Origin: an uncultured Chlorobiaceae bacterium
Lineage (GTDB): Bacteria; Bacteroidota; Chlorobiia; Chlorobiales; Chlorobiaceae
Assembly (NCBI GenBank): GCA_903869365.1
Contig: CAIPYV010000005.1
Coordinates: forward strand, 1-33,837
DNA: 33,837 nucleotides
Direction of reading: 5' to 3'
Position 1 is the stretch's first letter; the number at the start of each line of letters is the position of its first letter. A program made the position numbers and the translations under genes. Under the pieces are notes generated by a model, which saw only the letters and a program-made list of their open reading frames with translations, was not told the origin of the DNA and ran no database searches. Positions 756 to 13,177 of this stretch are shown one piece after another.

Positions 756-1073
756 TTAGGCGCACTCGCTGACTTCGCGGTCCGATTGATCAGCATGTTT
801 CAGTTGAGTAGCAAAAGCATCGACGTAGTCATCCCAAAGGTATAACATGTCAGGATCGAAATCAGCTCCATTGGGCCAAACGAGAGTTCCAACCTCATCA
901 TCAACAGTAACCTTATCAAAAAGCTCCTTTTTACGCAAAGGTCCATAGAGTTCACCATACAAAACAGGCTCGACATTAATACGCCTAACTGTGCCATCAT
1001 CAAAATGCACCCGTAATAAAAAACCATTATCCGGCAGATTGACAGCAGTAACCCTTCTCATTTGGTGTTTCAT
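756..1073 (-). CDS. DUF2442 domain protein
   Basis: A 105-residue protein of the DUF2442 family. An N-terminal strand region (VTAVNLPDNGFLLRVHFDDG) is followed by the conserved end VGTLVWPNGADFDPDMLYLW. It is soluble, with no signal peptide. The start at 1073 has a good Shine-Dalgarno sequence (AAGGAA, about 7 bases upstream), better than for the inner ATG at 1061. It lies 23 bases after the DUF4160 gene, so the two are almost certainly one transcript. The biochemical function is not known. The pairing with DUF4160 and a location among toxin-antitoxin scraps suggest an addiction or regulatory pair, which is inference. Confidence 0.85.
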   Translation of the reverse strand: MKHQMRRVTAVNLPDNGFLLRVHFDDGTVRRINVEPVLYGELYGPLRKKELFDKVTVDDEVGTLVWPNGADFDPDMLYLWDDYVDAFATQLKHADQSDREVSECA

Positions 1074-1096
1074 CGTAAATTCCTTCCCTTTTTACT

Positions 1097-1366
1097 TTAG
1101 TGCAGTGGCTCTATTCTTCTTGGTGCTTTACCTGCCTGTAACAAATCCCAATCTGCCATGAGTTCAAGCTGGTGAATTTCCGCCCAAGCCTCAACCAATC
1201 GACGTTGTCTATCAGCTAATGAACCTTCGATGGCCTCAATCGGATCAATTGAAAAAACAGCCTGAGAGCCCTGATAATAAACATGAAAATGGGGCTTATG
1301 ATGAGGAGAATCAATTTCGGAATACATCCTTATCAAAATTCCGTAAAATCTTGCTATCTCAGGCAC
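1097..1366 (-). CDS. DUF4160 domain protein
   Basis: An 89-residue protein with the full DUF4160 pattern: start MPEIARFYGILIRMY, central HHKPHFHVYYQG, then W-A-E-IHQLELMADWDLL. Translation starts at a GTG (1366), chosen because family members begin with MPEI-RF-G. It is the first gene of a two-gene unit with the DUF2442 gene 23 bases downstream. A decayed copy of the same pair sits at 303-648 on the opposite strand. Its molecular role is unknown. It is cytoplasmic, with no membrane segment. Confidence 0.85.
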   Translation of the reverse strand: MPEIARFYGILIRMYSEIDSPHHKPHFHVYYQGSQAVFSIDPIEAIEGSLADRQRRLVEAWAEIHQLELMADWDLLQAGKAPRRIEPLH

Positions 1367-1705: not shown

Positions 1706-3608
1706 TCACTGCCTGAACAGGGTCGAAGTTCGTTTATCACGGGGCGTCAGAAGCCAGTCGGTAAGATGACGGGCTTCAGGAGATGTCGTATTAGTTTTAG
1801 CGCAATCGCGAAGCTGCCGAAATTCATCTGCACTGAGTTTTTCCTCTCCTCCCATATTATTGATTCGCATTTGACCAACAGCTTCGCCAAAGTGAGCAAG
1901 AGCCAATGCCATTCCCTCCCCCCCTTTGGATAATATTTCCCAGACCCTTGCGGTGTTATCCATTGATGCGGTGACGACAAAGCGCCCGTTCGGGCTGAAT
2001 TGCGCTGAACGCACCAAGGACATATGTTGCATAGGCTGGGACAAAGGAATCGGATTGATAGTATACACAAGAGCAGAATAGAGCCGTGCGACGACACTAA
2101 GGTTTGTGCTATTAGTACGAATTGCGCGAGAGAGATATGCCATCCCCTCACTTAACCTCTCTTGCTCCAGGTACTCTGAGTCTTGGATAACGTCTGACCG
2201 GCTCAGTGTTTGCAATGCTTCATATTTTGCCTTTTCAGCCCGCTGATTGGATATCCAGCTATAAGCAGCCAAAGCGGCAAAGAGCAGCATCAGCAGTGTC
2301 AAAGTGGAAGCTCCCTTTATCTGGCGACGTATTTGCTGCCTGGCTTTATCCAATACCTCCTGTTCTCGTCGGGTAGTGCGGGAACGTACCGCCAGCGGAG
2401 TAAGAAGATCGTGGGTCAGTTCAAGACGGTTAGTGCCGTTGCGCTCTTCAGCGGTGAGAAGCCGCCTGGAAATCAGGGTGTAGATGAGTTGACGGGCATT
2501 CTGCACTCCCGCACTCTTCAATTCATTTTCAGCATCTTCAAGAGGTAGGGTGTTGCAATGGCCGCTGGGACTGACCAACTGATCCTCAACAAAGTGACGC
2601 AGTGCAACGGGTTGGTTGGCAAAACTCTCCTCGTAGTAATTACTGAGTATGTCATCTCCAAGAGTTGTTACCAGCCCGGAACTTATTTCTGCGTTCGGAG
2701 GGGAGCTTTTCAGGCGAGCAGCGTTCAACTGTTCGCAGAGAAGGCTTAAAAACGGCGGAACAGCCTCGATCTCATCCATTGGCATGTTGTCAGGACGGCG
2801 CGCAACCTTGAGTACGATCTGCATCCCCACCTTTTGGGAAACAATAGCGGCCTCCCCCCTTCTGCCGGGGCAAACCGCTGCTTCAAGGGCCTCTGGTCCG
2901 CTCAACAGATGCAGCGCCATCCGGTTGCGCATGAGCGAAGGCATCACACTTTTCCAGCGTTCCAGATGAGAGAGATAATCCGCCCGCAGGGTGAGCACAA
3001 TCCGGACAGGGGTTGCTGTTGTGTCGAACTCTCGGGCTTGCTGACGATCACTTCGAAACTGTTGCTGTAAAAAGACCGGAGGGCGGTTCTCCACCAGATC
3101 AGCTATCTGGGTAAACCATTCAACAACCTCAGCCTGTCGTGAACCGGAAAGGGTAAAGATCTCTTCAAACGAGTCAACAAACAAGCACCGGCGGAGATTG
3201 GAGCAAATCTTTCGGACGGGAATCGATATGATGAAGAATTTCCCAGAGGGTGACGGCGGGTTTTACACTCTCTATCTTCAGTGCCTTGCAGAGAGCAAGA
3301 CGGGTCTGATCTGCCAGTGAAGGGACATCTTCAGAAAAACTCAGCCGGATCAACTGCGGTCGATAGCTCTCAACCTTGAGTTTCGGGAGAAGACCGGCCC
3401 CAAGCAGTGAAGTTTTACCGAAACCGGACTGACCGAACAGAGTGGTAAGTCTGTTTTCCCTGACACGCGTGAAGAGTTCATTGATCGCGTTGTTTCGGCC
3501 AAAGAAGTATGCCTGGGTCTCTTCGGTGTAGGCATTGAGGCCAAGCCACGGGTGCTGGTCGTCAACAATCTGACGACTGTCATCAGGTTTCAGTGTTGTA
3601 CTCTTCAT
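1706..3608 (-). pseudogene. nSTAND-type NTPase with residual WD40, frameshifted
   Basis: Two adjacent frames (3608 to 3174, then 3184 to 1706) form one STAND NTPase. The N-terminal part has HPWLGLNAYTEETQAYFFGR and a Walker A, GQSGFGKTSLL. The Walker B should read PPVLVVDSFEEIFTL, but an extra T near 3180 throws the frame into a stop. Downstream are the winged-helix-like region (RRLLTAEERNG...LELTHDLLTPL), a membrane segment (TLTLLMLLFAALAAYSWI), then a single WD40 repeat (FSPNGRFVVTASMDNTARVW). That repeat jumps straight into the usual C-terminal tail (LAHFGEAVGQMRIN ... DWLLTPRDKRTSTLF), so most of the propeller has been deleted. STAND proteins sense a ligand through the repeat region and oligomerise to trigger an effector. 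The SIR2-TIR gene 40 bases upstream is the likely effector partner. Confidence 0.75.
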
Positions 3609-3648
3609 GGGTTACACTTTCATAGCTTCGTGTCGAACGGCTCTCTCA

Positions 3649-5025
3649 TTACCCTTTTGGACGGCCGGAGTTGCGGTACTCCTCTAACAGAGTCTGCATC
3701 CACCGCGCAAAATCTGGAGTTACTCTCCCATTCAGCAGCAGTGTACGGTGACTACGGGCAAGTTGTGGCGGCTCATGTTCAACATTTGCCAGTTTTTCGA
3801 TCAGCACTGGAATATAGTAGACAAAGCCATCAACCTGGCGCTGAGCTGCCCACGTACGTTCCTGATGGACATAGCGGGTCTGGTCTGATTCGGTATTTTT
3901 TGAAATCAGCGAGATGAAAAAGCTGGAATCATTTTTTATTGCATTCTCCAACTTCCGCTCGAAGTTTTCGCCTGCGGAGAGCCTTTTTTTGTCGAGCCAT
4001 ACCGGTATTTTTGCAGCCATCAGGCCACGCGCCAGTTCCAGGGCAGACGATTGATCGTCATGAGAATAACTGATAAAAACATAACCACGAGGCAACTCGT
4101 CGCTCATCGACTGTAGGAGATCACCATCGGCTGACAGAGAGTAGCGTTCTCTCCACTGACGGGCAAGTTCGCAGGCGAAGTCGCACGGGTTGCCAGGAAT
4201 AATGCGGGTGGAACCCACCTTCTGTTCATAAAAAAAGATCGTCGGGGATGCTATTGTTGCCGGTTCGTCAGCCACATAGTCCAGACGACCCTGATCACGA
4301 GGATCTGAAAAGCGCTTTCCTTTTGCTACACGAAGGAAAAAACGGACCATCCAGTCGTTGAATGGAGAGCCGATCAGGAGCAGGTCTTTATTGCGCAGGT
4401 GGTCAAAAAGCAATCGCAGATTATCCTGCTTCTCCAGCAGTCCGCAGATATATTCGATGTAATCTTCCTCCCAGACAACAAAATCGGGGTAGGTGTTGTG
4501 TGTGCCAAGGATGTGAAAGAGAAATGGTGCCGGCAGTTGCGAGGGAAGATCCCGGGGTTGTTGGGATGAAAATCGAGACCATTCTGTTCCGGCAGAAAAC
4601 CAGGATTGTTCTGCTCAAGGGCTTGCGATGTCAGAGGATCAAATGTTGTGGAGATAAAGAGCGCGAAATCAGTAATCGAGGTCAGATCAAGCAATGCCCT
4701 TGAGGGTTGAGCTTTCAGTTTGTCCACCAGATCCCGTACCTCGTCATAGATCTCTTTGCATGCATTGCCGCTCAATAGCCAGGAGCAGGTTACGGCGTTG
4801 AGCGTAGGTTGTTCTCCCTGTGGGATCGGAATCTTGAGACGCCTGGCAAGTTCGGCAGCAAGGTGGCGGTAAAGCGAAATCTGCTGGCCATCAGCAGAAG
4901 TAATGGTCACCAGTTCCGGGCCTATGACTGGAAGCACCTGCCCTGCATAAATGTCGCGCATAAGGCTCCGCCCACTGGCGATCATCAAGAAAGGGAGTAG
5001 TAGAACGTTGGGATTCTAATTCCAT
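3649..5025 (-). pseudogene. SIR2-like/TIR fusion protein, two frameshifts
   Basis: Three consecutive frame segments rebuild one protein of about 455 residues. ATG at 5025 (weak AGGA upstream) begins MELESQRSTTPFLDDRQWAE. An extra base near 4964 shifts to LMRDIYAGQVLPVIGPELV. A second shift at 4551-4565 joins NGLDFHPN to PRDLPSQLPAPFLFHILG and YPDFVVWEEDYIEYI. The N-terminal half is a SIR2-like NAD-binding fold (IGPELV in the GAG position, TTFD for TTN, and a likely catalytic His in LFHILG). The C-terminal half (about residues 290-430) is a TIR domain (GYVFISYSHDD, PVWLDKKRLSAGENF, an acidic residue in HQERTWA). Both domains are linked to NAD+ breakdown in immunity. The gene is interrupted as read; sequencing error cannot be excluded. 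Confidence 0.75.
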
Positions 5026-5210
5026 GATAAAAGTCCTGGATGAGCCTATGCAAAAGCGATATGTAAAACAATGTTACTGAGGAGCTGAGGTTAAGTTTGT
5101 ACTGTCAAGTTATCAAAAATATGGAAAGAAAGGCTCTCAACCGTGGGATCCGTCTTGCATGCGCCGGCTAACAAGTGGTACAGAACTTAGCAAAATCTTT
5201 GAGAAATCTC

Positions 5211-6917
5211 TCACGCAACCAGTTCGGGTGAGTTAAAACTAATGAGAGCCCACCATTCGTAATTTTCAAGATTGACCGTCCATACTGCTTGTTGGACGAT
5301 CTCTCTGAGTTCATATAGATTGCTACTATCATTAGCAAGTGCTTCCAGTCGGCCCAGTTCACAAGCCATTTTTTTTGAGCGTTCAGCAATACGATCATAC
5401 TCCAGTTGTTTGCCTATGGCGTGTAATGCCGCACCCCAAACGGGCAAAGTGACGGCAAGAAATGTTCCCCATTTGCTTAAAGAAAAAATCTCTTCTCCCT
5501 CAGGGATACGCTCATGCCCTATACCGCTCAGATGGAAAACTGCCATTGCCAAAGTAATGCAGAAAAGCGCTATCACGGTATTCCGAAGCTTATGTTCGGT
5601 ATCCTCTTTTATTTTGGCATTTCTTAAGTGCCAATTTTTTTGATTTTTCAGCCATCCATAAATGATAAATGTTTTAATAGCGTCTAAATCAGCAGTACCA
5701 TTGATGTTAGAAAAGACTTTTTTTACCTGGATCGCTATAAGGAAATCAATCCAGTTTTTAGGTTTATTGTAGAATGGTAAGGGTTGTGATTCAGGAGATG
5801 AGCCTGAAAGAGGATAGTCTTGAACCATAACGGTAAACATCGATGTGCGTAATCGCTCGGCAAGAAAGCGGTAATTGATCCATTTTTCATGCCATGAGAA
5901 CCGTCGACTGATATAGAGTGCGGCTAACACAGCCGCCATTGAGCCGATTTCCAAGAAAATAATTTTTGTTTGATGCTCAAAAAAAATTAACTGAGACACA
6001 ACGACCGAAACCGCAACTGCAGAGAAGATATGGATCAATTTGCTTACTCGAACATGACAGTTTTGATTGTGTGAAGCGACCTTGTCTGAGTGCACATAAG
6101 CAGGTATGAGGTATTTTAAAATCGGTTCGAGTTGGACACAGGGTAATGATGTCATTTGTGCAAGTTCCCGGATTTCCTGACGGCGCTTTTCCGTGAGAAT
6201 ATCCTGTTTTTTATTAGGATGATATAAGTCATGGCAAAATTTCACAAAGTGATGATCACGGCTAAACTCTGCAAATTGACGGTAGTTTATAGTGAGAATG
6301 CTTGTCTCGCTGGCTAACTGAAACTCTTGATAGTCGGGAGTGCTTTTTTGTTCGACTTTGTTTTTTTTTGCACGAAGCAGCGTGGCTTGGGCATTGGGAT
6401 TCCCAGTATCAATACGAAGAACAATTCGCCCGCGCTCAAGGGCATAGCTGACAATTTCGGCTGTTCCTCCCTTGCCCTGAGATGGATTGCCGTCCCAGAT
6501 GGCTATCAGAATTTCACAGGCATCGACAACTTTTTTGCCGACTGGCAAATAACCCTCTGAACTCGGAGGCATCTCAACATGTAGAGATGCACTCTCCAAT
6601 AACTGATTGAACTCCTGTAAATCTTTCGGATCGGTAAAGTTTTTGCGATATTCACCCAGAGAAAAGGGTGTGAGTACTTCCAGTCGTGCGCTCTCTTTTT
6701 TCAGGATTGATTTTGCTACAATTCTGTCGGCCCCCTTTGCCAGAGGTGAAATAACCGTCCATTCAATCGGAACATTGTCCTGATTGTTCATCAGGTTTTC
6801 CAGATAAGTAAGCAGACGGTTCACTGCTTCCGCAACAGCATGCTCCTCTGTCAGTTTGCTGTGACCGGTTACTCCGATACGAAGCTCATAGGCGAGTTGC
6901 TCTGGCTTGCTTGGCAT
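5211..6917 (-). CDS. SLOG-SLATT membrane effector protein
   Basis: A 568-residue intact protein. Residues about 10-170 form a Rossmann-like SLOG/LOG-type nucleotide-binding domain: VTGHSKL (16-22), SPLAKGADRIVAKS (57-70), IAIWDGNPSQGKGGTAE (138-154). Residues about 280-365 carry two membrane helices followed by WINYRFLAERLRT, the signature of SLATT (SMODS/SLOG-associated 2TM) effectors. A second TM pair (around 435-500) is followed by YDRIAERSKKMA and a long helix ending EWWALI, a second SLATT-like half. Family knowledge: SLOG domains are thought to sense or process nucleotide signals, and SLATT modules to act as pore-forming effectors. No strong Shine-Dalgarno precedes the ATG. It sits 185 bases before the SIR2-TIR start. 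Confidence 0.8.
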   Translation of the reverse strand: MPSKPEQLAYELRIGVTGHSKLTEEHAVAEAVNRLLTYLENLMNNQDNVPIEWTVISPLAKGADRIVAKSILKKESARLEVLTPFSLGEYRKNFTDPKDLQEFNQLLESASLHVEMPPSSEGYLPVGKKVVDACEILIAIWDGNPSQGKGGTAEIVSYALERGRIVLRIDTGNPNAQATLLRAKKNKVEQKSTPDYQEFQLASETSILTINYRQFAEFSRDHHFVKFCHDLYHPNKKQDILTEKRRQEIRELAQMTSLPCVQLEPILKYLIPAYVHSDKVASHNQNCHVRVSKLIHIFSAVAVSVVVSQLIFFEHQTKIIFLEIGSMAAVLAALYISRRFSWHEKWINYRFLAERLRTSMFTVMVQDYPLSGSSPESQPLPFYNKPKNWIDFLIAIQVKKVFSNINGTADLDAIKTFIIYGWLKNQKNWHLRNAKIKEDTEHKLRNTVIALFCITLAMAVFHLSGIGHERIPEGEEIFSLSKWGTFLAVTLPVWGAALHAIGKQLEYDRIAERSKKMACELGRLEALANDSSNLYELREIVQQAVWTVNLENYEWWALISFNSPELVA

Positions 6918-7080
6918 AACGATTCTATTAAAAGGCTATTGAAAAAACAGTTATATTAATGGCCGAGTTTTATGATGACATCATCGGCATTTTTCAACAT
7001 GATCGGAATACTCTCTGAGTTACGCCTGTTAATCCATAGTCTATCTATATACGATAATAATGAAGATCTACTGCAAAACC

Positions 7081-8988
7081 TCATTTATTAGTACTTGCAG
7101 ACTCATAATTGTTTCTTAACTGCAAAGCTTGCAATGATTGTTCGATGATGTCGTTATCTTTAACATGCTCTGTTTGGGATAACTTTTCTTCGAGTAAGGT
7201 AGAATTAACCCTGAGGCATCGATCCAGTTCCTTACCTGATTTAATTTGCATCTCGGTATATTTTGCAGGATGACTCCCATGTGTAAAACCATTCATAAAC
7301 ATAAATGCTCTGTACCGGCGCCTTTCCATGATTACCAAATCGTTGTATTTTTTTTCCATAAGTTTTCGGTCATTATCCGAAATGTTTACACTCCCCTTAA
7401 ATACACAATTTGCAACTGTTTCTGAATTAATCCCAGAGTAGCGAGCTTTGATCGCCAGATGGTCTGCGACATCCCGATTTGACTCTTTAAAGAGCAATTT
7501 TTCTTGTTCCCAATCTTTGTTGTCTATTTTTTGACGTTTTGCATACACTGAATGAAATCCTTTTGCAAGGTCATCTGCAAGGTCATCTGTAACTGTTTTG
7601 GCAAAAACAGAGTCAAGGCATATCTCCTCTATACTATAAGGTATTTCCTTTAATACAGGAATATCATTACCATTCCTTATTCCAACAACTGATTTACTCT
7701 GCACTGCAAGGATTAAACGTTGCGGTATAGTACCAATTAACTCATCATGAACACCTAATGCCGCCTGCAGATCACGTGCTTCTGCCAGATTGCGTATATC
7801 AGAATCGTGACACACATAAATAACCGATGGCCAACGTGCACCACAGGTTTCAGATATAGAACCGTCTCGAACAGCATGTACTGCGGACGATTTCAGAAGA
7901 CATACGTTAATCGTGGGCAACACACTATCAAAATAATCCTGAGAGATTTCCGACCTTCCTCCCCAAGACTCGCAGACACTGTAATCAGTGTCAAGTGCAG
8001 GATAAATGGCTTTAAGTTCCAAGAATGCCTTAGTTACTCCTTCACCTGCCCAAATCACAAGAAGTTTTCCTTTGGGCGAAAAAATGCCGATGCGTGCAAA
8101 CCTAAGTAAGATCGCCTTAGCGGCTTCAGACGTGCCAGTCACCATCACGATTTGGGAAATAGGGCCTTGTTCAGTATGGGCATAAATATCGGGAGCGTAA
8201 TCATTCACGATGCCTCGCGCCGCTATATCGATGGGGTTACAGGAACGAATGTCTAATTGTGTATTTTGGTTAAGCGCTTTAAGTCCAACCCAGTCTACAA
8301 GAAGTCTTTGCATATCGCTTGATTCAGTACGAATGAATACTTTTGAAGAATTCTTAAGATATCCGGAAATGTTTTCAAGAATTGACAGATTGTCTCGTTC
8401 CTTTGGAAGTAAGAGATAAATACATTTTGCATGTTCCAGATTAGCAATTTTCCCTATGTTGGGGTGCAGAGCATTATAGCTTAGTATAACAGGTTTTTGT
8501 TTGTTGCTCTTATTCTCTTTTTCCTTGTTTTCTGGAGGATCAATCAAGTCAATTCCGACTATCAATTTTCCATTTATAAAAAGTTGTTTTGCTAATGCCT
8601 GCCCAAATGCACCATAACCGACGATCACATAGTGATTATGAAGACGACCAACCTCCAACTTTTTCATATACGGTACAATACGATCATGGAAGAGCTTGCT
8701 GAAAATTGTGATAGAAGCAAATAACGGGATTGCAAATTGGGTAGCGTAAAGAGCATATCGAAGAATATTATTCACTACGTCATCAGCTGTCTTGTTAAGA
8801 ACAATAAATTGTAAAGAATAGTAAAAGCCATGAAGAAATCGCGATGGCATACTCCCGCCCAACGCACAAATCCAAAGTCCTGTAGAAATAGCAAGCAACA
8901 AACCTACAATCCATTTACCATGGTAATCAATCAATTCAATCCATTTGCCTTCTCTGAACCAATGAATCCATTTGCTTATCCAGTTCAT
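7081..8988 (-). CDS. 2TM channel-like protein with TrkA_N and RyR domains
   Basis: A 635-residue intact protein with a good Shine-Dalgarno (TGAGG, 8 bases before ATG). Helices lie near residues 26-45 and 76-99 with a pore-like loop between. They are followed by a TrkA_N/RCK-type Rossmann domain starting HYVIVGYGAFGQALAKQL (119-136) and probably a second, weaker one (IVMVTGTSEAAKAILLRFA). Residues about 500-575 resemble a bacterial RyR domain (ESNRDVADHLAIKAR, then MERRRYRAFMFMNGFTHG). The layout resembles a K+ channel plus RCK regulator, but the T-x-G-Y-G filter is absent. RyR domains occur with SLATT, SLOG and TIR genes in predicted nucleotide-signal conflict systems, which is exactly the neighbourhood here. 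Likely a ligand-gated membrane protein; the ligand is unknown. Confidence 0.75.
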   Translation of the reverse strand: MNWISKWIHWFREGKWIELIDYHGKWIVGLLLAISTGLWICALGGSMPSRFLHGFYYSLQFIVLNKTADDVVNNILRYALYATQFAIPLFASITIFSKLFHDRIVPYMKKLEVGRLHNHYVIVGYGAFGQALAKQLFINGKLIVGIDLIDPPENKEKENKSNKQKPVILSYNALHPNIGKIANLEHAKCIYLLLPKERDNLSILENISGYLKNSSKVFIRTESSDMQRLLVDWVGLKALNQNTQLDIRSCNPIDIAARGIVNDYAPDIYAHTEQGPISQIVMVTGTSEAAKAILLRFARIGIFSPKGKLLVIWAGEGVTKAFLELKAIYPALDTDYSVCESWGGRSEISQDYFDSVLPTINVCLLKSSAVHAVRDGSISETCGARWPSVIYVCHDSDIRNLAEARDLQAALGVHDELIGTIPQRLILAVQSKSVVGIRNGNDIPVLKEIPYSIEEICLDSVFAKTVTDDLADDLAKGFHSVYAKRQKIDNKDWEQEKLLFKESNRDVADHLAIKARYSGINSETVANCVFKGSVNISDNDRKLMEKKYNDLVIMERRRYRAFMFMNGFTHGSHPAKYTEMQIKSGKELDRCLRVNSTLLEEKLSQTEHVKDNDIIEQSLQALQLRNNYESASTNK

Positions 8989-9219
8989 GCGATTACCTCA
9001 TAAGTAATTGAAAAAATATCAGCATCGATTACGTCTAAACTATTATTCGGATTACCTGATCAACCAACCTGCAACTTACACTATAACTGAACCTCATTGG
9101 TCGAATCGTAGGTAGGGTAACTCAAGACGTAATCCGGTGGCTCAGCTTGCAACAACGACAGTTTGATGTAAATTAAATATATATGACATTTAACCAGGCA
9201 GTAGTAGGGTCAAACTTCT
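8989..9219. other. Intergenic region with a long-spaced inverted repeat
   Basis: No gene is seen. GATTACGTCT (9027-9036) and its exact reverse complement AGACGTAATC (9125-9134) flank 88 bases. The promoter of the TrkA-RyR gene probably lies here, making the region a possible regulatory site. The evidence is only the repeat and its position. Confidence 0.35.
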
Positions 9220-11181
9220 TCAATCATTATCGATTTTGCTGAGGTTTTTCAGTGCAGGTGTATATCCTTGCTTGGCAGATTTACGGTACCAGGTCACAGC
9301 TTCTTTTTTATTTTTAGGAACTCCTTCTCCATCCGCATACATATCACCAAGATGGTTCTGGGCCTCAGCATCTCCATTGACAGCGGCTTTGCGGTACCAA
9401 GTTACAGCTTCTTTTTCATTTTTAGGAACACCTCTACCATATGCAAACATATCTCCTAAATTGAACTGTGCAGCTGCATATTCCTGCTCTGCGGCTTTGC
9501 GGTACCAGTTCACTGCTTCTTTTTCATCTTTAGGAACACCTTCTCCATCCGCATACATATCGCCTAAATTGTTCTGAGCATCGGCATTTCCCTGCTCTGC
9601 GGCTTTGCGGTACCAGTTCACTGCTTCTTTTTCATCTTTGGGAACACCTTCTCCATCCGCATACATATCGCCTAAATTGTTCTGAGCATCGGCATTTCCC
9701 TGTTCGGTTGCTTTCGGCTCTGCTGCTTTGCTGTACCAGTCCATAGCTTCTTTATAATTTTGAAGAAGTCCTTCTCCATCCGCATACATATCGCCTAAAT
9801 TGTTCTGAGCAGCTCCATATCCCTGATCTGCGGCTTTGCGGTACCAGTTCACTGCTTCTTTTTCATCTTTAGGAACACCTCGACCATACGCATACATATC
9901 TCCCAAATTGTTCTGAGCAGCTGCATTGTCCTTTTCTACTGCTTTGCCGTACCAGTCCACAGCTTCTTTATAATTTTTAGGAACACCTCGACCATACGCA
10001 TACATATCTCCCAAATTGTTCTGGGCATCAGCATTTTTCTGTTCTGCTGCTTGGCGATACCAGCTCACCGCTTCTTTATAATTTTGAAGAACTCCTTTTC
10101 CATTTGCATACATATTGCCTAGATTATTCTGGGCATCAGCATTTCCCTGTTCTGCGGATTTACGGTACCATTTTAACGCTTCTTTATAATTTTGAAGAAC
10201 TCCTTTTCCATTTGCATATATATTGCCTAGATTGTTCTGGGCATCGGCATTTCCCTGTTCTGCTGCTTTGCGATACGAGTTTAACGCTTCTTTATAATTT
10301 TGAAAAGCTCCTTTTTCATTGGCATACATATTGCCAAGATTATTCTGGGCATCGGCATTTCCCTGTTCTGCCGCTTTGCGGTACCAGCTCATCGCTTCTT
10401 TTTCATTTAAAAGGACGCCTTCTCCTTTTTTATACATGCTGCCAAGATAGAGCTGTGCAGCAGCATATCCTTGATCTGCGGCTTTCAGAAATAAGTGATA
10501 AGCCTGCTCATATTGTTTCGCATTATACAATTCAACTGCTTTGTTGTAATTTTGTGCATTAGTATCCGGTTCTATTATTGGTATTGATTGGGTTTGAGGT
10601 TCTTTAAGTGTAGGAACTCTATCTCTGGATTGATAAAAAAAAGTTATCAATATCCCTGATACAACAAACAGAACGACCAATCCTAATGGAAGCATTTTAG
10701 TCGCTGCAAGTTTTTTAAAAGCACGGATATATTTTATCCAGATTGGGTCTGGTCGTTCTTGATTAGGATCCGGTGGTACAGGTCTTGGTGGTTTTCCTAA
10801 AATATTTGACATATCCTCTACCAGCTTGAGGAAAGAAAAATCTGAAGTACTCCCCTTCCATTCTATGAGGTTGGCTGCTTGAGTTGACCTGAACCCCATC
10901 GGTTGATCAACTGAACTTATGAGTATTGGTATTAGTATTTGGCGTTTTAGCCCTGATTCTGCTTCCTCACGAACCCAGGTGCTTTTTATTGACACTTCAG
11001 ACCACAACACCAACATACAACGGGTGTTAGCAAGAGCATCCTCAATTACCTCGGCATATTTTTTTCCAGCTGGAATTGTGCGATCCCACCAGACAACCCA
11101 TCCCAAAGCCCCTAATGCCTTGCCCAGCTGCTGAGCCCGTTGGCGGTCTTCATGTGCATAGCTGATAAAAATATCAAACAT
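9220..11181 (-). CDS. TIR-TM-Sel1 repeat protein
   Basis: A 653-residue protein. The frame opens farther upstream with a TTG at 11232, but ATG at 11181 is preferred because it begins directly at the TIR domain, MFDIFISYAHEDR, with a GGA about 9 bases upstream. TIR spans about 1-130 (GWVVWWDRTIPAGKKY; likely catalytic acidic residue at E72/E73 in WVREEAESGL). A proline-rich linker and a membrane helix (about 164-183) follow. Then come about eleven Sel1-like repeats of 36 residues (LG-MYA-G-GV---EA--WYRKAAEQGNADAQNN). Repeats eight and nine are near-identical at DNA level. Inference: Sel1 repeats sense or scaffold a protein ligand and the TIR acts on NAD+ or makes a signal molecule. It is the first gene of the minus-strand conflict block. 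Confidence 0.85.
   Translation of the reverse strand: MFDIFISYAHEDRQRAQQLGKALGALGWVVWWDRTIPAGKKYAEVIEDALANTRCMLVLWSEVSIKSTWVREEAESGLKRQILIPILISSVDQPMGFRSTQAANLIEWKGSTSDFSFLKLVEDMSNILGKPPRPVPPDPNQERPDPIWIKYIRAFKKLAATKMLPLGLVVLFVVSGILITFFYQSRDRVPTLKEPQTQSIPIIEPDTNAQNYNKAVELYNAKQYEQAYHLFLKAADQGYAAAQLYLGSMYKKGEGVLLNEKEAMSWYRKAAEQGNADAQNNLGNMYANEKGAFQNYKEALNSYRKAAEQGNADAQNNLGNIYANGKGVLQNYKEALKWYRKSAEQGNADAQNNLGNMYANGKGVLQNYKEAVSWYRQAAEQKNADAQNNLGDMYAYGRGVPKNYKEAVDWYGKAVEKDNAAAQNNLGDMYAYGRGVPKDEKEAVNWYRKAADQGYGAAQNNLGDMYADGEGLLQNYKEAMDWYSKAAEPKATEQGNADAQNNLGDMYADGEGVPKDEKEAVNWYRKAAEQGNADAQNNLGDMYADGEGVPKDEKEAVNWYRKAAEQEYAAAQFNLGDMFAYGRGVPKNEKEAVTWYRKAAVNGDAEAQNHLGDMYADGEGVPKNKKEAVTWYRKSAKQGYTPALKNLSKIDND
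9491..9706 (-). repeat. Near-perfect 108-bp tandem repeat inside the Sel1 gene
   Basis: Bases 9491-9598 and 9599-9706 differ at only one internal base (A/G in the ATCTTTAGG/ATCTTTGGG stretch) and the last few positions. Each unit encodes one Sel1 repeat of 36 residues. The other repeats in the gene are more diverged, so this looks like a recent duplication or gene conversion. Confidence 0.8.
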
Positions 11182-11232
11182 CACTAATATCCGATTGTTA
11201 AAAAAAACAAATGAATCCTCCCAAACAAACAA

Positions 11233-11836
11233 TAAAGGTCTGAGTTTAACGTTGGTAACCTGCCCTGATCGAACTGTTAAAAGGCACTGTCCTTTTAAAC
11301 TTCCAATTTCTTTGTGAGAGTCTTCTTCTCACGATTCATGTTAACTATTCTTGCACCACCTCCGTTGTCCGTCCGGTAAATTTTTTTATGATGTGCTATA
11401 GACCAACGATTGATGCATTCTCTTAAAGTTGGAAAATACTAAATATTCTTAGAATACAAGCTATGCTCTGCGCCAGAGTCGTTCCATAAAGATGTTATCC
11501 AGTACACGACCACAAGCAAGCATCTTCGCGCATTTAGGACGGCAATAAAAACATCACAGGTGCATTGAAAACCTCTATCTGTGTTGAATATTTCTGGTAT
11601 TCCATAAACCAACAATGCTGTATTTAAACAGTCAAAAAAAATCAATTATTCAAGGTGTTCGATAAACGCTATGCGAGAAACTTACGTTCTTATCAGAAAT
11701 TTCCACTAAATAGAAGCATTTTTTTCACCCAAGGAGTGTACTGATAGGATAGTAACTTTTTCAAAACTACTTTAAATATTAATAATTATATTGCAGTGCA
11801 GATGACCTTCTTGAGCACTTTGTAACAAAAACAGAT
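11233..11836. other. Non-coding border of the conflict block
   Basis: A 600-base stretch without an intact gene. It separates the minus-strand immunity genes from the plus-strand core genes. It contains the IS3-type transposase scar listed separately. On the minus strand a short open stretch (about 11300-11385, IYRTDNGGGARIVN) has no recognised family. The promoter for the TIR-Sel1 gene should be just after 11182, but I see no clear consensus. Confidence 0.5.
11460..11640 (-). pseudogene. IS3-family transposase (OrfB, integrase core) remnant
   Basis: The minus strand reads YGIPEIFNTDRGFQCTCDVF, the core around the second catalytic Asp of IS3/IS911-type rve integrases (YG-PEI-NTDQGSQFTS--F). 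In a shifted frame it continues VLDNIFMERLWRRA, the segment with the catalytic Glu. At least one frameshift and deletion of both ends make it a scar. It marks past insertion-sequence activity at the boundary of the defence block. Confidence 0.75.
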
Positions 11837-12343
11837 ATGTATGCAGAACACCGTCAAAGAGTGTACAGAGAGATGAAACACAATCCATTAAAGAAAGTCG
11901 GGATTATTGTTTTCCTTGTGGGCCGGTATCTTTTTGCAGCGTTTTTTCTTTATGGGTTCTGGCGCAAGTTGACGAAGGGGTGGCTTTGGAGCGATCTGAT
12001 GCTGGGGTTTTTTACCCAGCGTTTTGGGGAGCTTCCTGCGGGTTCGTTTCAGGCTAACTATCTTGAGCACTTTGCCATACCGTTGGCATTTCCGATTGCG
12101 TGGATTGTTACGGTCGGAGAACTTATCATCGGTCTTTCGCTTATGGCTGGTTTTGCTGTCAGGATCAACGCAGCGTTTGCGTTATTCCTTGTGCTTAATT
12201 TTGCGGCGGGGGGCTATTACAATCTTTCCCTTCCACCATTTATGATCTTTTCGGTATTGATGATGCTGCTCCCATCAGGCCACTGGCTTGGGTTGGACAA
12301 GCAACTGCACCAGAGATACCCCGATTCCATCTGGTTCAAATAA
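11837..12343 (+). CDS. DoxX-like integral membrane protein
   Basis: A 168-residue hydrophobic protein with about four membrane helices. It shows the DoxX/SURF4-like pattern: RYLFAAFFLYGFWRKL, AWIVTVGELIIGLSLMAGF, and a final helix ending in LLPSGHWLGLDK. Family members are inner-membrane proteins of varied or unproven function, some linked to terminal oxidase subunits or thiol stress. An alternative start is the ATG at 11873 (MKHNPLKK), preceded by an AGAGAG purine run; the first 12 residues are polar and may not be translated. It lies 6 bases before the TPR gene, so they probably share a transcript. Confidence 0.75.
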   Translation: MYAEHRQRVYREMKHNPLKKVGIIVFLVGRYLFAAFFLYGFWRKLTKGWLWSDLMLGFFTQRFGELPAGSFQANYLEHFAIPLAFPIAWIVTVGELIIGLSLMAGFAVRINAAFALFLVLNFAAGGYYNLSLPPFMIFSVLMMLLPSGHWLGLDKQLHQRYPDSIWFK

Positions 12344-12349
12344 CTGAAC

Positions 12350-13177
12350 ATGCCTACCTCCAAAAATTGCTGCTCCATCCACTACCGCTGGGTTTATGTT
12401 TTTCTTCTCTTTTCGCTGACTGCACTTTTTCCTGCAATTGCTGCCAAAAAAGCAAAAAAAGCTACCATCAAACCAACTGAAACGCCAATCGAAATTGCCG
12501 ATGAGGCGTTATGGCAGATGAACTACTCAAAAGCTGATTCAATATACTCGGCAGAACTTCACAATAATCCCTGTAATGCCGATCTCCACTGGAAAATGGC
12601 CCGGCTGCAGGTGAGCCTTGGGGAGTCGTTTCCTAAGGGAAACTTCGATGCCCGTATGCTGCACTACCGTAAAGCGGCGGAATATGCCCGCACCAGTATC
12701 TCACTTGACAGCACAAATGCTAAAGGTCACACCTGGCTTGCTGCTTCACTTGGCATGATGGCTGAAAAAATAGGCACCAAGGAAAAATTAAAGCGGGGAC
12801 AGGAGATAAAACGGGAGCTTGATACCGCGCTTCGATTAAACCCGAACGATGCAACCGCGCTCTCCATACTCGGATCTTATTATCGTGAAGCCGCAAATAT
12901 CGGATGGTTTAAAAGAATGGTGGGCAACGCCTTTCTCGGTGAAGTACCGAAAGGCAATTATACCCTGGCAGAAAAAGCATTCCGAAAATCGATCAGCATT
13001 GATCCCGGAATCATAAGAAGCTACCATGAACTGGCGTTAATCTGTATTAAATCCGGTAACAAGGAGGAAGCAATCTCGCTCATGAAGACCGCGCTTGATA
13101 AACCCATTCTGATAGAGAGTGACAAGAGACGCATTGAGGAGATGCATGCACTCTTGAAACAACTTACGAAAGAGTAG
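12350..13177 (+). CDS. Exported TPR-repeat protein
   Basis: A 275-residue protein with a signal peptide (hydrophobic core VYVFLLFSLTALFPAIAA, likely cleaved before the KKAKKA stretch). Several tetratricopeptide-like helix pairs follow, such as ADLHWKMARLQVSLGES, AKGHTWLAASLGMMAEKIG, ATALSILGSYYREAANI and SYHELALICIKSGNKEEAI. It is probably periplasmic or an outer-membrane-associated scaffold; no enzyme motif is present. Its stop codon is one base from the stop of the convergent aroQ gene. Confidence 0.75.
   Translation: MPTSKNCCSIHYRWVYVFLLFSLTALFPAIAAKKAKKATIKPTETPIEIADEALWQMNYSKADSIYSAELHNNPCNADLHWKMARLQVSLGESFPKGNFDARMLHYRKAAEYARTSISLDSTNAKGHTWLAASLGMMAEKIGTKEKLKRGQEIKRELDTALRLNPNDATALSILGSYYREAANIGWFKRMVGNAFLGEVPKGNYTLAEKAFRKSISIDPGIIRSYHELALICIKSGNKEEAISLMKTALDKPILIESDKRRIEEMHALLKQLTKE

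What the first reader, a model, noticed from the sequence alone, without database searches (positions are those of the whole stretch)
1706..11181. Five-gene TIR / RyR-TrkA / SLOG-SLATT / SIR2-TIR / nSTAND conflict block
Five consecutive minus-strand genes carry domains tied to NAD+ breakdown (two TIR, one SIR2), nucleotide-signal sensing (SLOG, TrkA_N, RyR), membrane effectors (SLATT, 2TM channel-like) and a STAND sensor. SLOG, SLATT and RyR associations are known from comparative genomics of nucleotide-centred conflict systems, but the exact combination with a TIR-Sel1 protein is not one I can name. A working model is that TIR-Sel1 makes an NAD-derived signal, which is bound by the SLOG or RyR proteins, which then open a pore. 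The genes may also be two systems side by side: an intact three-gene one (5211-11181) and a decaying two-gene one (1706-5025). Gaps of 163-231 bases between the three intact genes allow separate promoters.
Basis: partly seen in the sequence, partly recalled or inferred. Interest (0 to 1): 0.82.

Follow-up and report, generated by a model that had tools for sequence, protein, structure and literature searches.

The report
TIR enzyme with ryanodine-receptor-like channel
In a green sulphur bacterium, a gene for an immune-type TIR protein sits next to one for a membrane channel ending in a domain related to animal ryanodine receptors, and distant bacteria repeat this pairing, so it is probably a two-gene defence system in which an NAD-derived signal opens a pore.

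Summary
The five-gene block is real. Three genes are intact: TIR-TM-Sel1, 2TM-TrkA-RyR-like and SLOG-SLATT. SIR2-TIR and nSTAND1-WD40 are broken into four frames. HMMs confirm TIR, Sel1, TrkA_N and nSTAND1, and SLATT through DUF4231 only. RyR fails Pfam on the window protein but profile comparison recovers it (99.8%, E 3e-30). SLOG support is weak.

The block is not conserved: TrkA-RyR and SLOG-SLATT share 1 of 101 related genomes, this one. A pair recurs: in 13 of 21 TrkA-RyR loci examined (Bacteroidota with Chlorobium, Fusobacterium, Butyrivibrio, Sinorhizobium, Arcobacter) the adjacent gene is TIR or DUF4062. Among genomes found by Pfam RyR searches it is 5 of 10, about 0.013 expected.

Best model: the TIR makes an ADP-ribose-type signal, read by the RyR/RCK part of a channel lacking the K+ filter. 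A 2026 preprint shows phage RyR-domain proteins bind or cleave cADPR signals. In Chlorobium three of four ligand residues differ, so the ligand may differ.

SLOG-SLATT is probably a second module, the broken pair a third. No activity was tested; a key 2025 preprint could not be read.

The parts
9220..11181 (-). TIR-TM-Sel1 protein, 653 aa: TIR at the N-terminus, one TM segment, 11 Sel1 repeats; predicted NAD+-processing signal maker with a repeat sensor
   Evidence: Pfam TIR_2 5.7e-21, Sel1 4e-120; one hydrophobic segment, residues 164-182; glutamate of the TIR motif present, as in all 8 TIRs aligned (that this glutamate is the catalytic one is recalled)
10858..11172 (-). TIR domain, one of only two TIR_2 hits in the whole genome, both in this window
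   Evidence: search of G000 with PF13676
7081..8988 (-). 2TM-TrkA_N-RyR-like protein, 635 aa; predicted signal-gated channel effector
   Evidence: TrkA_N 5.1e-7; profile match to TrkA-RyR proteins of other genera, 99.8%, E 3e-30, 542 columns; AF2 model (mean pLDDT 59.6) resembles GsuK and RCK gating rings
8659..8931 (-). TM1, pore-helix-like segment and TM2, without a TVGYG-type K+ filter
   Evidence: hydrophobic segments 27-45 and 79-97; filter motif absent in 15 of 15 homologues checked
8299..8631 (-). TrkA_N (RCK-type) nucleotide-binding lobe
   Evidence: Pfam, residues 120-230
7114..7521 (-). RyR-like domain with changed ligand site (R, Y, N, D against H, W, H, D)
   Evidence: alignment of 15 TrkA-RyR proteins; profile comparison; no Pfam hit on its own
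5211..6917 (-). SLOG-SLATT protein S, 568 aa: SLOG-like N-terminus and two SLATT-type 2TM modules (4 TM)
   Evidence: DUF4231 8 of 8, SLATT_3 7 of 8 and SLATT_1 6 of 8 family members at E up to 0.1; four hydrophobic segments
6318..6917 (-). SLOG-like domain of S (weak evidence)
   Evidence: sub-threshold hits to DprA, YspA-related SLOG and nucleoside deoxyribosyltransferase families; DprA profile E 0.0042 but probability 8%
4374..4988 (-). broken SIR2-like fragment (first frame of a SIR2-TIR gene)
   Evidence: 28.7% to the SIR2 part of an intact SIR2-TIR protein in G038, E 2.5e-11; no Pfam hit
3649..4413 (-). TIR fragment of the broken SIR2-TIR gene
   Evidence: TIR_2 1.9e-18; overlaps the previous frame
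3174..3608 (-). nSTAND1 N-terminal fragment (P-loop part)
   Evidence: nSTAND1 1.1e-19
1706..3184 (-). nSTAND1 C-terminal fragment with TM and a single WD40, truncated
   Evidence: nSTAND1 7.9e-10, WD40 4.3e-7; frame change against the previous fragment

Best explanation
The first two genes (TIR-TM-Sel1 and 2TM-TrkA-RyR-like) are a local version of a widespread two-gene TIR / RyR-channel system, most likely anti-phage. Proposed working: the Sel1 part senses infection, the membrane-anchored TIR turns NAD+ into an ADP-ribose-type signal, the signal is read by the C-terminal RyR-like domain and/or the RCK (TrkA_N) lobes of the partner, and the two-helix membrane part opens as a non-K+-selective pore, stopping growth or killing the cell. 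Shown here: domains, homology, recurrent adjacency, missing K+ filter. Inferred: signal, binding, pore, defence. The SLOG-SLATT gene downstream is a second membrane effector module that may listen to the same signal but is not an obligatory part. The SIR2-TIR / nSTAND1 pair is a separate, decaying system.
For: Thirteen of 21 TrkA-RyR loci examined have a TIR or DUF4062 gene as immediate neighbour, in five phyla if Chlorobium is counted in Bacteroidota; within three genes or about 1 kb it is 15 of 21. The three Sinorhizobium loci are near copies (93-100% identity), and the TIR of G099 is itself broken. Among the 10 genomes whose TrkA-RyR was reached through Pfam RyR searches 5 have it; expected 0.013, P about 7e-13; one per genus 4 of 8, P about 3e-10. 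G251 has one TIR_2 hit in its genome and it is the neighbour. Gaps are 3-47 bases or overlaps in 10 of the 13 pairs, so transcription is probably shared. Window TrkA-RyR is homologous over its length to these proteins, whose profile hits an RyR1 chimera at 1.2e-30, other RyR1 chains at about 1e-26 and bacterial TrkA at 1.4e-15. Phage RyR-domain proteins bind or cleave 2'/3'cADPR (PMC13232231). All 8 TIRs aligned keep the motif glutamate. The AF2 model is nearest to GsuK, whose listed PDB entries include NAD- and ADP-bound forms.
Against: Six of 21 TrkA-RyR loci have no TIR or DUF4062 gene in the stretch held (G041, G020, L052, G623, G503, G516; all but G623 are contigs of 5-11 kb, home-made HMMs). 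Three of the five Chlorobium-group loci are among them, and in G041 the same site lacks the TIR present in G003. In the window's clade three of four cADPR-contacting residues are replaced, and RyR is below Pfam detection. The window's two genes are 231 bases apart. TIR domains like that of gene 1 are common in Chlorobium (27 of 101 genomes). RyR falls below the Pfam cut-off or is not hit in the far members G147, G432, Fusobacterium, Butyrivibrio and Sinorhizobium, and the Sinorhizobium DUF4062 match is just below cut-off. [quoted passage not shown] No activity, pore or phage protection was tested. The model has mean pLDDT 59.6.
Confidence: 0.6

Rival explanations
1. All three intact genes are one system: TIR-Sel1 makes a signal, SLOG-SLATT (S) and TrkA-RyR are two membrane effectors (or sensor and effector) for it.
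For: Same strand and similar low GC, 39-44%. RyR and SLOG genes meet repeatedly: AAA-RyR then S in G012 and G057; AAA-RyR, SLOG, TrkA-RyR in a row in G516; SLOG and TrkA-RyR in G503; S-like, RelA-LSDAT-RyR, TIR, AAA-RyR in G647; SLOG near DUF4062/TrkA-RyR in Sinorhizobium. S also sits beside TIR genes in G024, G052, G038. SLATT is predicted in print to be an ADPr-derivative-regulated membrane effector (PMC9503650, passage seen).
Against: S and TrkA-RyR together in only 1 of 101 related genomes. Of 17 Chlorobium AAA-RyR loci held, 2 have S next door and 15 do not in the stretch held. Distant S proteins in G233 and G210 have no TIR, RyR or SLOG neighbour by the searches made.
Confidence: 0.22
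2. In Chlorobium the TrkA-RyR protein has left the cADPR-type pathway: it reads another ligand (for example NAD(H), ADP or a nucleotide through its RCK lobes), and the adjacent TIR-Sel1 acts alone as an NADase.
For: H75/W78/H100 equivalents are R, Q, Q, M or E / Y / N in 5 of 5 Chlorobium-group sequences; only D117 is kept. Three of five of these loci lack a TIR neighbour. Best structural matches are RCK channels and gating rings, though the RyR part was barely tested there.
Against: The changed region is among the most conserved of the family (ME.RRYR.FMFMN), so it is under selection and may be a re-tuned pocket. Loss of the catalytic histidine is what a sensor that must not cleave its ligand might show. 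Two of the loci do carry a TIR-TM gene next door.
Confidence: 0.25
3. Chance neighbours in a defence island: TIR, TrkA-RyR, SLOG-SLATT, SIR2-TIR and nSTAND are independent genes collected at a hot spot.
For: A transposase-like remnant lies upstream (about 11430-11560); two neighbours are decaying; the block is unique to this genome among 101 relatives; the nearest relative of TIR-Sel1 (G057:C19, 61% over the TIR) is in a genome without a TrkA-RyR hit.
Against: TIR/DUF4062 adjacency to TrkA-RyR recurs in unrelated lineages, mostly with 3-47-base gaps or overlaps, and in G251 and G083 the genome has only 1 and 2 TIR genes. The chance model used does not correct for defence islands, so its P value overstates the case.
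Confidence: 0.12
4. TrkA-RyR is a housekeeping ion-transport regulator, not a defence effector.
For: TrkA_N/RCK lobes regulate K+ transporters and channels (family knowledge; matches).
Against: Patchy: 4 of 101 relatives and 3 of 296 phylum genomes with the Chlorobium profile, one of these a plain channel by my reading of its DNA; on plasmids in Sinorhizobium, Butyrivibrio, Arcobacter; NADase-type partners.
Confidence: 0.06

Closest known systems
Thoeris anti-phage systems (TIR protein ThsB plus a signal-activated effector)
   Same: A TIR gene next to an effector gene with a predicted nucleotide-sensing domain and, as in membrane-type effectors, TM segments (effector classes of the types are recalled).
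   Different: Effector is a 2TM-RCK-RyR protein; no ThsA-type SIR2-SLOG, Macro-TM or caspase effector. PADLOC hits for gene 1 lie on the TIR (ThsB, SAVED-TIR, PDC-S66 and others) plus one weak one (PtuA1) on the Sel1 part; none for TrkA-RyR or S of the window or for six far TrkA-RyR proteins. NCBIfam's Thoeris type III ThcB4 matches only at TIR level, 32.1 bits against a cut-off of 220.
RyDEP family: phage RyR-domain proteins that cleave or sequester 2'/3'cADPR (PMC13232231)
   Same: PF02026 RyR family; ligand residues H75, W78, H100, D117 are all kept in 6 of 10 non-Chlorobium TrkA-RyR proteins.
   Different: Those are phage anti-defence proteins; here the domain is the C-terminus of a bacterial membrane protein next to a TIR. 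The Chlorobium copies keep 1 of 4 residues. 'TrkA' does not occur in that paper's main text.
Animal ryanodine receptors (R12 repeat domains)
   Same: The far TrkA-RyR profile hits RyR1 chains at 1.2e-30 (a chimera) to about 1e-26 over the RyR repeats; both are channels or channel-like with a cytosolic RyR domain.
   Different: The bacterial pore part is a 2TM-RCK type, not the RyR/IP3R pore; no Ca2+ release role is implied.
GsuK and other RCK (MthK, Slo1, TrkA) channels and gating rings
   Same: 2TM plus RCK lobes; best Foldseek hits GsuK at 1.2e-7, gating rings Z 14 with rmsd about 4 over about 300 residues.
   Different: No TVGYG-type filter in 15 of 15 sequences; extra RyR-like domain.
SLATT effectors with SLOG or TIR partners (Burroughs/Aravind network)
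   Same: S has SLOG-like and SLATT-type parts; TIR-SLATT neighbourhoods are in print for Firmicute phages (PMC9503650, passage).
   Different: S carries two SLATT-type modules in one protein and, in some Chlorobium, sits beside RyR genes. The 2015 founding paper was not held and not read.
DUF4062 TIR-like NADases, 'Swarozyc' (PMC13174449)
   Same: A DUF4062 gene takes the place of the TIR gene next to TrkA-RyR in G653, Sinorhizobium and Arcobacter.
   Different: Not shown to be the same proteins; 'RyR' and 'TrkA' do not occur in that paper's main text (otherwise only listing and passages seen).

Membership tests
TIR domain proteins | TIR domain above the curated cut-off | tested here: met
   TIR_2 75.7 bits against cut-off 28 for gene 1; 67.5 bits for the broken one
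TIR domain proteins | conserved glutamate of the NADase motif | tested here: met
   present at the same column in 8 of 8 aligned TIRs; its catalytic role is recalled
TIR domain proteins | NAD+ cleavage or signal production | not testable with these tools
   needs biochemistry
RyR domain (PF02026) | Pfam gathering score | tested here: not met
   no hit in window protein or the other 3 Chlorobium members scanned; met by distant homologues G251, G074, G083
RyR domain (PF02026) | homology to RyR-bearing proteins over the domain | tested here: met
   hhalign 99.8%, E 3e-30, alignment runs through the RyR region
RyR domain (PF02026) | ligand residues H, W, H, D as in RyDEP | tested here: not met
   window R, Y, N, D: 1 of 4; 9 of 10 non-Chlorobium homologues keep 3-4 of 4
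2TM-RCK channels | two TM helices followed by RCK lobes | tested here: met
   TrkA_N, two hydrophobic segments, model of moderate confidence nearest to GsuK
2TM-RCK K+ channels | TVGYG-type selectivity filter | tested here: not met
   absent in 15 of 15
SLATT | DUF4231 (SLATT-type, recalled) match and 2TM units | tested here: met
   DUF4231 29.4 bits against cut-off 24.7; four hydrophobic segments; DUF4231 8 of 8 family members at E up to 0.1
SLATT | a SLATT-named model above its cut-off in the window protein | tested here: not met
   SLATT_3 17.7 against 26.3 bits; NCBIfam SLATT_1, _3, _4 all below cut-off
SLOG | match to a SLOG-superfamily family or solved structure | tested here: inconclusive
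   DprA 3 of 8, YspA-type SLOG 2 of 8, deoxyribosyltransferase 1 of 8, all sub-threshold; DprA profile E 0.0042, probability 8%; no significant PDB hit
Thoeris | TIR gene adjacent to a signal-gated effector gene | tested here: inconclusive
   adjacency met (elsewhere); that the neighbour is signal-gated is inferred
Thoeris | known effector (ThsA or another named one) | tested here: not met
   no PADLOC or NCBIfam Thoeris effector hit for TrkA-RyR or S
Thoeris | phage protection | not testable with these tools
   needs phage assays
nSTAND1 systems | intact nSTAND ATPase gene | tested here: not met
   nSTAND1 in two frames, truncated WD40 end

The most novel reading that the evidence does not exclude
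Bacteria carry a TIR-to-ryanodine-receptor-domain channel pathway: a TIR or DUF4062 NADase makes an ADP-ribose-type signal that gates an RCK channel through a RyR domain, a bacterial counterpart of the debated cADPR-RyR axis of animals, and phages answer with small RyR-domain proteins. In Chlorobium the RyR pocket has been re-tuned (a variable residue, Y and N for H, W and H), predicting a different ADP-ribose derivative.
Probability: 0.4. Interest if true: 0.9.

Novelty: new variant of a known kind. Interest (0 to 1): 0.7.

Why it matters
If right, it adds a new effector class (RyR-bearing RCK-type channel) to TIR second-messenger immunity, and gives RyR domains of bacteria a role as receptors of NAD-derived signals. 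It would offer a small, testable model for whether cADPR-type molecules act directly on RyR domains in channels, a long-debated question in animals. It would also help explain why phages carry RyR-domain proteins that soak up such signals. The DUF4062 swaps suggest that TIR and DUF4062 enzymes feed the same kind of effector.

Tried and rejected
Five-gene single system: rejected, as the last two genes are broken and the block was not found in another genome examined; the GC difference is only a hint.

Three-gene conserved unit: not supported among 101 relatives; kept only as a rival because SLOG and RyR genes meet elsewhere.

Structure of S: AF2 on the single sequence gave mean pLDDT 36.9 and was not used. 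SLOG against the PDB: no significant hit (best E 0.055, a designed protein; a YtoQ chain at 0.72); whole S: none significant. RyR-like part of the window protein by fold search: the listed matches mainly span residues 25-500, so the RyR part was barely tested; the absence of RyR structures there shows nothing. PDB sequence searches with the Chlorobium TrkA-RyR alone found only weak hits: YbaL, TrkA, SMUBP-2 and a sulfotransferase.

Viral contigs: no relatives of the Chlorobium TrkA-RyR, S or the far TrkA-RyR profile. Plasmids: none for the window protein. Phages collection: none for the G251 protein. Promoter scan: no excess of promoter-like sites over shuffles (14 against 17.5); terminator-like sites 11 against 5.9, 10 of the 11 on the plus strand. 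Separate promoters are neither shown nor excluded.

AAA-RyRx2 proteins of Chlorobium as partners of S: only 2 of 17 loci.

Literature: searches for SLATT/SLOG/RyR/TIR together, RyR domain with TrkA, Thoeris with ThcA, Thoeris with RyR, RyR domain with TIR domain, and ryanodine receptor with TIR domain listed no paper whose title or abstract start describes a TIR / TrkA-RyR pair. Most listed papers were not opened, PMC8295901 among them, and unheld papers are not covered.

Dropped from counts: RyR hits G152 (fragment), G557, G583, G780, G357 (112-137-aa proteins) and G647 (RyR proteins without TrkA_N found) were left out of the TrkA-RyR set, as were the Chlorobium AAA-RyR proteins; Methylobacterium (L162, a 910-aa RyR protein with a SIR2 gene in the same stretch) and the Haloarcula hits were not examined further. 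For G432 the TIR/DUF4062 gene number was assumed to be 5, not measured; gene numbers were taken as one per kb.

Full report
What the window is. The window is a whole contig (G000:C5) of a 2.93-Mb genome, 99.99% complete. Its relatives carry Chlorobium, Chlorobiaceae and Chlorobiales names where names are given.

What is in the block. On the minus strand lie TIR-TM-Sel1 (11181-9220), the 2TM-TrkA_N protein (8988-7081) and S, the SLOG-SLATT protein (6917-5211). Downstream are four frames that belong to two broken genes: SIR2-TIR (4988-3649) and nSTAND1-WD40 (3608-1706). The genome has only two TIR_2 hits and both are here. GC is 50-52% over 2-5 kb and 39-44% over 5-12 kb; the other bins span 41-54%, with 41% at 1-2 kb. 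This hints, no more, that the broken pair and the intact genes came separately. A short transposase-like remnant sits upstream of TIR-Sel1 (the IS3-type name is recalled).

Domains. Gene 1: TIR_2 and 11 Sel1 repeats, one TM segment. Gene 2: two TM segments and TrkA_N; no Pfam RyR. Gene 3: two SLATT-type modules and four TM segments (DUF4231 above cut-off, SLATT-named models below), with an N-terminus that looks like SLOG by motif and by weak hits to three related families, but without a firm match.

Does gene 2 really have a RyR domain? A search of 247 phylum genomes with PF02026 found RyR matches in 20; two class searches found them in 6 of 244 and 9 of 391. Ten of the genomes have TM-TrkA_N-RyR proteins of 560-910 aa, some over the Pfam RyR cut-off (G251, G074, G083) and some under it (G147, G432). 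A profile of seven of them matches the profile of the window protein and its four orthologues over 542 columns (probability 99.8%, E 3e-30), and itself hits RyR1 chains at 1.2e-30 (a chimera) and about 1e-26, and bacterial RyR and TrkA structures. So gene 2 is a diverged TrkA-RyR protein. The four residues that contact the ligand in phage RyDEP (H75, W78, H100, D117; PMC13232231, results read) were mapped by motif and spacing. They are H, W, H, D in 6 of the 10 non-Chlorobium proteins aligned, with one or two differences in the other four (for Fusobacterium a gap at the last), and R/Q/Q/M/E, Y, N, D in the five Chlorobium-group proteins. None of the 15 has a TVGYG-type filter.

Neighbours of TrkA-RyR genes. 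Immediate TIR or DUF4062 neighbours: window and G003; G251, G074, G083 and G099, the last a broken TIR; G653; Fusobacterium vincentii, Butyrivibrio fibrisolvens, three near-identical Sinorhizobium loci and an Arcobacter plasmid. That is 13 of 21 loci. In G147 a TIR gene is three genes upstream, and in G432 a TIR-bearing frame begins about 1 kb away on the other strand, with a small RyR frame in the same stretch, giving 15 of 21. No TIR or DUF4062 in the stretch held: G041, G020, L052, G623, G503, G516 (home-made HMMs). Gaps are 4, 23, 22, 32 and 3 bases in G251, G074, G099, G653 and Fusobacterium; overlaps in G083 and Sinorhizobium; 14 and 47 bases in Arcobacter; 191, 231 and 320 in G003, the window and Butyrivibrio. 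In Arcobacter the TrkA-like part and the RyR domain are two genes. The Fusobacterium and Butyrivibrio proteins have no Pfam RyR or TrkA_N hit and are members by tblastn and alignment only. The TIR partner's other half varies: Sel1, FGE, Fib_succ_major, WD40-like repeats, or DUF4062 with NACHT/AAA and TPR, as expected of a swapped sensor.

Chance. For the 10 genomes reached through Pfam RyR searches, 5 have an immediate TIR/DUF4062 neighbour; from the counted TIR and DUF4062 genes (G432 assumed 5) and one gene per kb, 0.013 are expected (P about 7e-13; one per genus, 4 of 8, P about 3e-10). This null ignores clustering of defence genes. For the four Chlorobium carriers found by the genome search it is 2 of 4 against 0.018 expected.

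S. Relatives of S: 9 of 101 related genomes, 3 of them only SLOG-length hits; 13 of 296 phylum genomes with the profile. S follows an AAA-RyRx2 gene directly in G012 and G057 and lies next to TIR plus nSTAND-type genes in G024, G052 and G038 (in G038 the TIR beside the longer S copy is broken). S itself has stops in G052; G038 has one open 590-aa copy and one fragment. Far relatives stand alone in G233 and G210; G245 has an unidentified 336-aa gene before it. In G647 an S-like gene precedes a RelA-LSDAT-RyR gene, a TIR gene and an AAA-RyR gene. In G516 the order is AAA-RyRx2, SLOG, TrkA-RyR. Fifteen other Chlorobium AAA-RyR loci have no S, SLOG or TIR hit in the stretch held. So SLOG/SLATT and RyR genes belong to one network, but S is not a fixed partner.

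Mechanism. TIR domains make ADP-ribose-type signals; RyR-family proteins of phages bind or cleave 2'/3'cADPR and thereby block Thoeris (PMC13232231). An RCK-type membrane protein with a RyR domain, next to a TIR gene, is therefore best read as the receptor and effector of that signal. [quoted passage not shown] The steps shown are anatomy and association; signal identity, binding, gating and defence are inferred. In the window's clade the pocket has changed while the region stays strongly conserved, which suggests another ligand rather than decay.

What is known. PADLOC (2023) gives no hit for the TrkA-RyR proteins tested (the window's and six others) or for the window's S; it gave one weak partial hit (PDC-S46) for the G647 S-like protein. 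NCBIfam (June 2026) gives none above a curated cut-off for the TrkA-RyR and S proteins tested. The RyDEP preprint calls the RyR homology surprising and does not mention TrkA. SLATT as an ADPr-derivative-regulated membrane effector and TIR-SLATT neighbourhoods are in print (PMC9503650, passage; PMC7159879, passages). Two papers that could hold the pairing were not read: Yirmiya et al. 2025 and the 2015 network paper. Six literature searches listed no description of it.

Verdict. The finding is real but should be re-drawn: a TIR / RyR-channel pair (two genes), a SLOG-SLATT module beside it, and a decayed SIR2-TIR / nSTAND1 pair. The pair, as a recurrent system in several phyla, is the interesting part.

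Noticed in passing
L134 (G647:C91) 4666-7221: One protein joins a RelA/SpoT synthetase, an LSDAT (TRPM-type SLOG) and a RyR domain (below cut-off), between an S-like SLOG-SLATT gene and a TIR gene: a possible alarmone plus ADP-ribose signalling hub.
   Followed up: partly
L130 (G516:C156) 2632-7141: AAA-RyRx2, SLOG and TrkA-RyR genes in a row with 4- and 54-base gaps.
   Followed up: partly
L095-L109, L057, L058 (Chlorobium): An about 880-915-aa protein with an AAA-type ATPase part and two RyR domains is common in Chlorobium; 15 of 17 loci have no TIR, SLOG or S hit in the stretch held. Function unknown.
   Followed up: partly
L133, L135, L136, L138: Small RyR-only proteins (112-137 aa) in Bacteroidota contigs; whether these are phage genes was not tested.
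   Followed up: no
L157 (G249) 5527-8438: TIR, caspase (Peptidase_C14), ThsB-like TIR, SLOG and a further small frame in a row: looks like a TIR-caspase (type IV Thoeris-like, recalled) locus with an added SLOG gene.
   Followed up: partly
L137 (G432) 6149-12926: TrkA-RyR gene divergent from a long TIR-containing frame, with a separate small RyR frame (PF02026 E 1.1e-32) overlapping the start of that frame.
   Followed up: partly
L145 (Arcobacter plasmid) 5946-9669: TrkA-like part and RyR domain are encoded by two separate genes, followed by a DUF4062 gene.
   Followed up: partly
window 756-1366: Two small minus-strand genes that resemble a DUF2442/DUF4160 pair (names recalled, not searched).
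   Followed up: no
window about 11430-11560: Remnant with transposase-like peptide, broken by frame changes, upstream of TIR-Sel1.
   Followed up: partly
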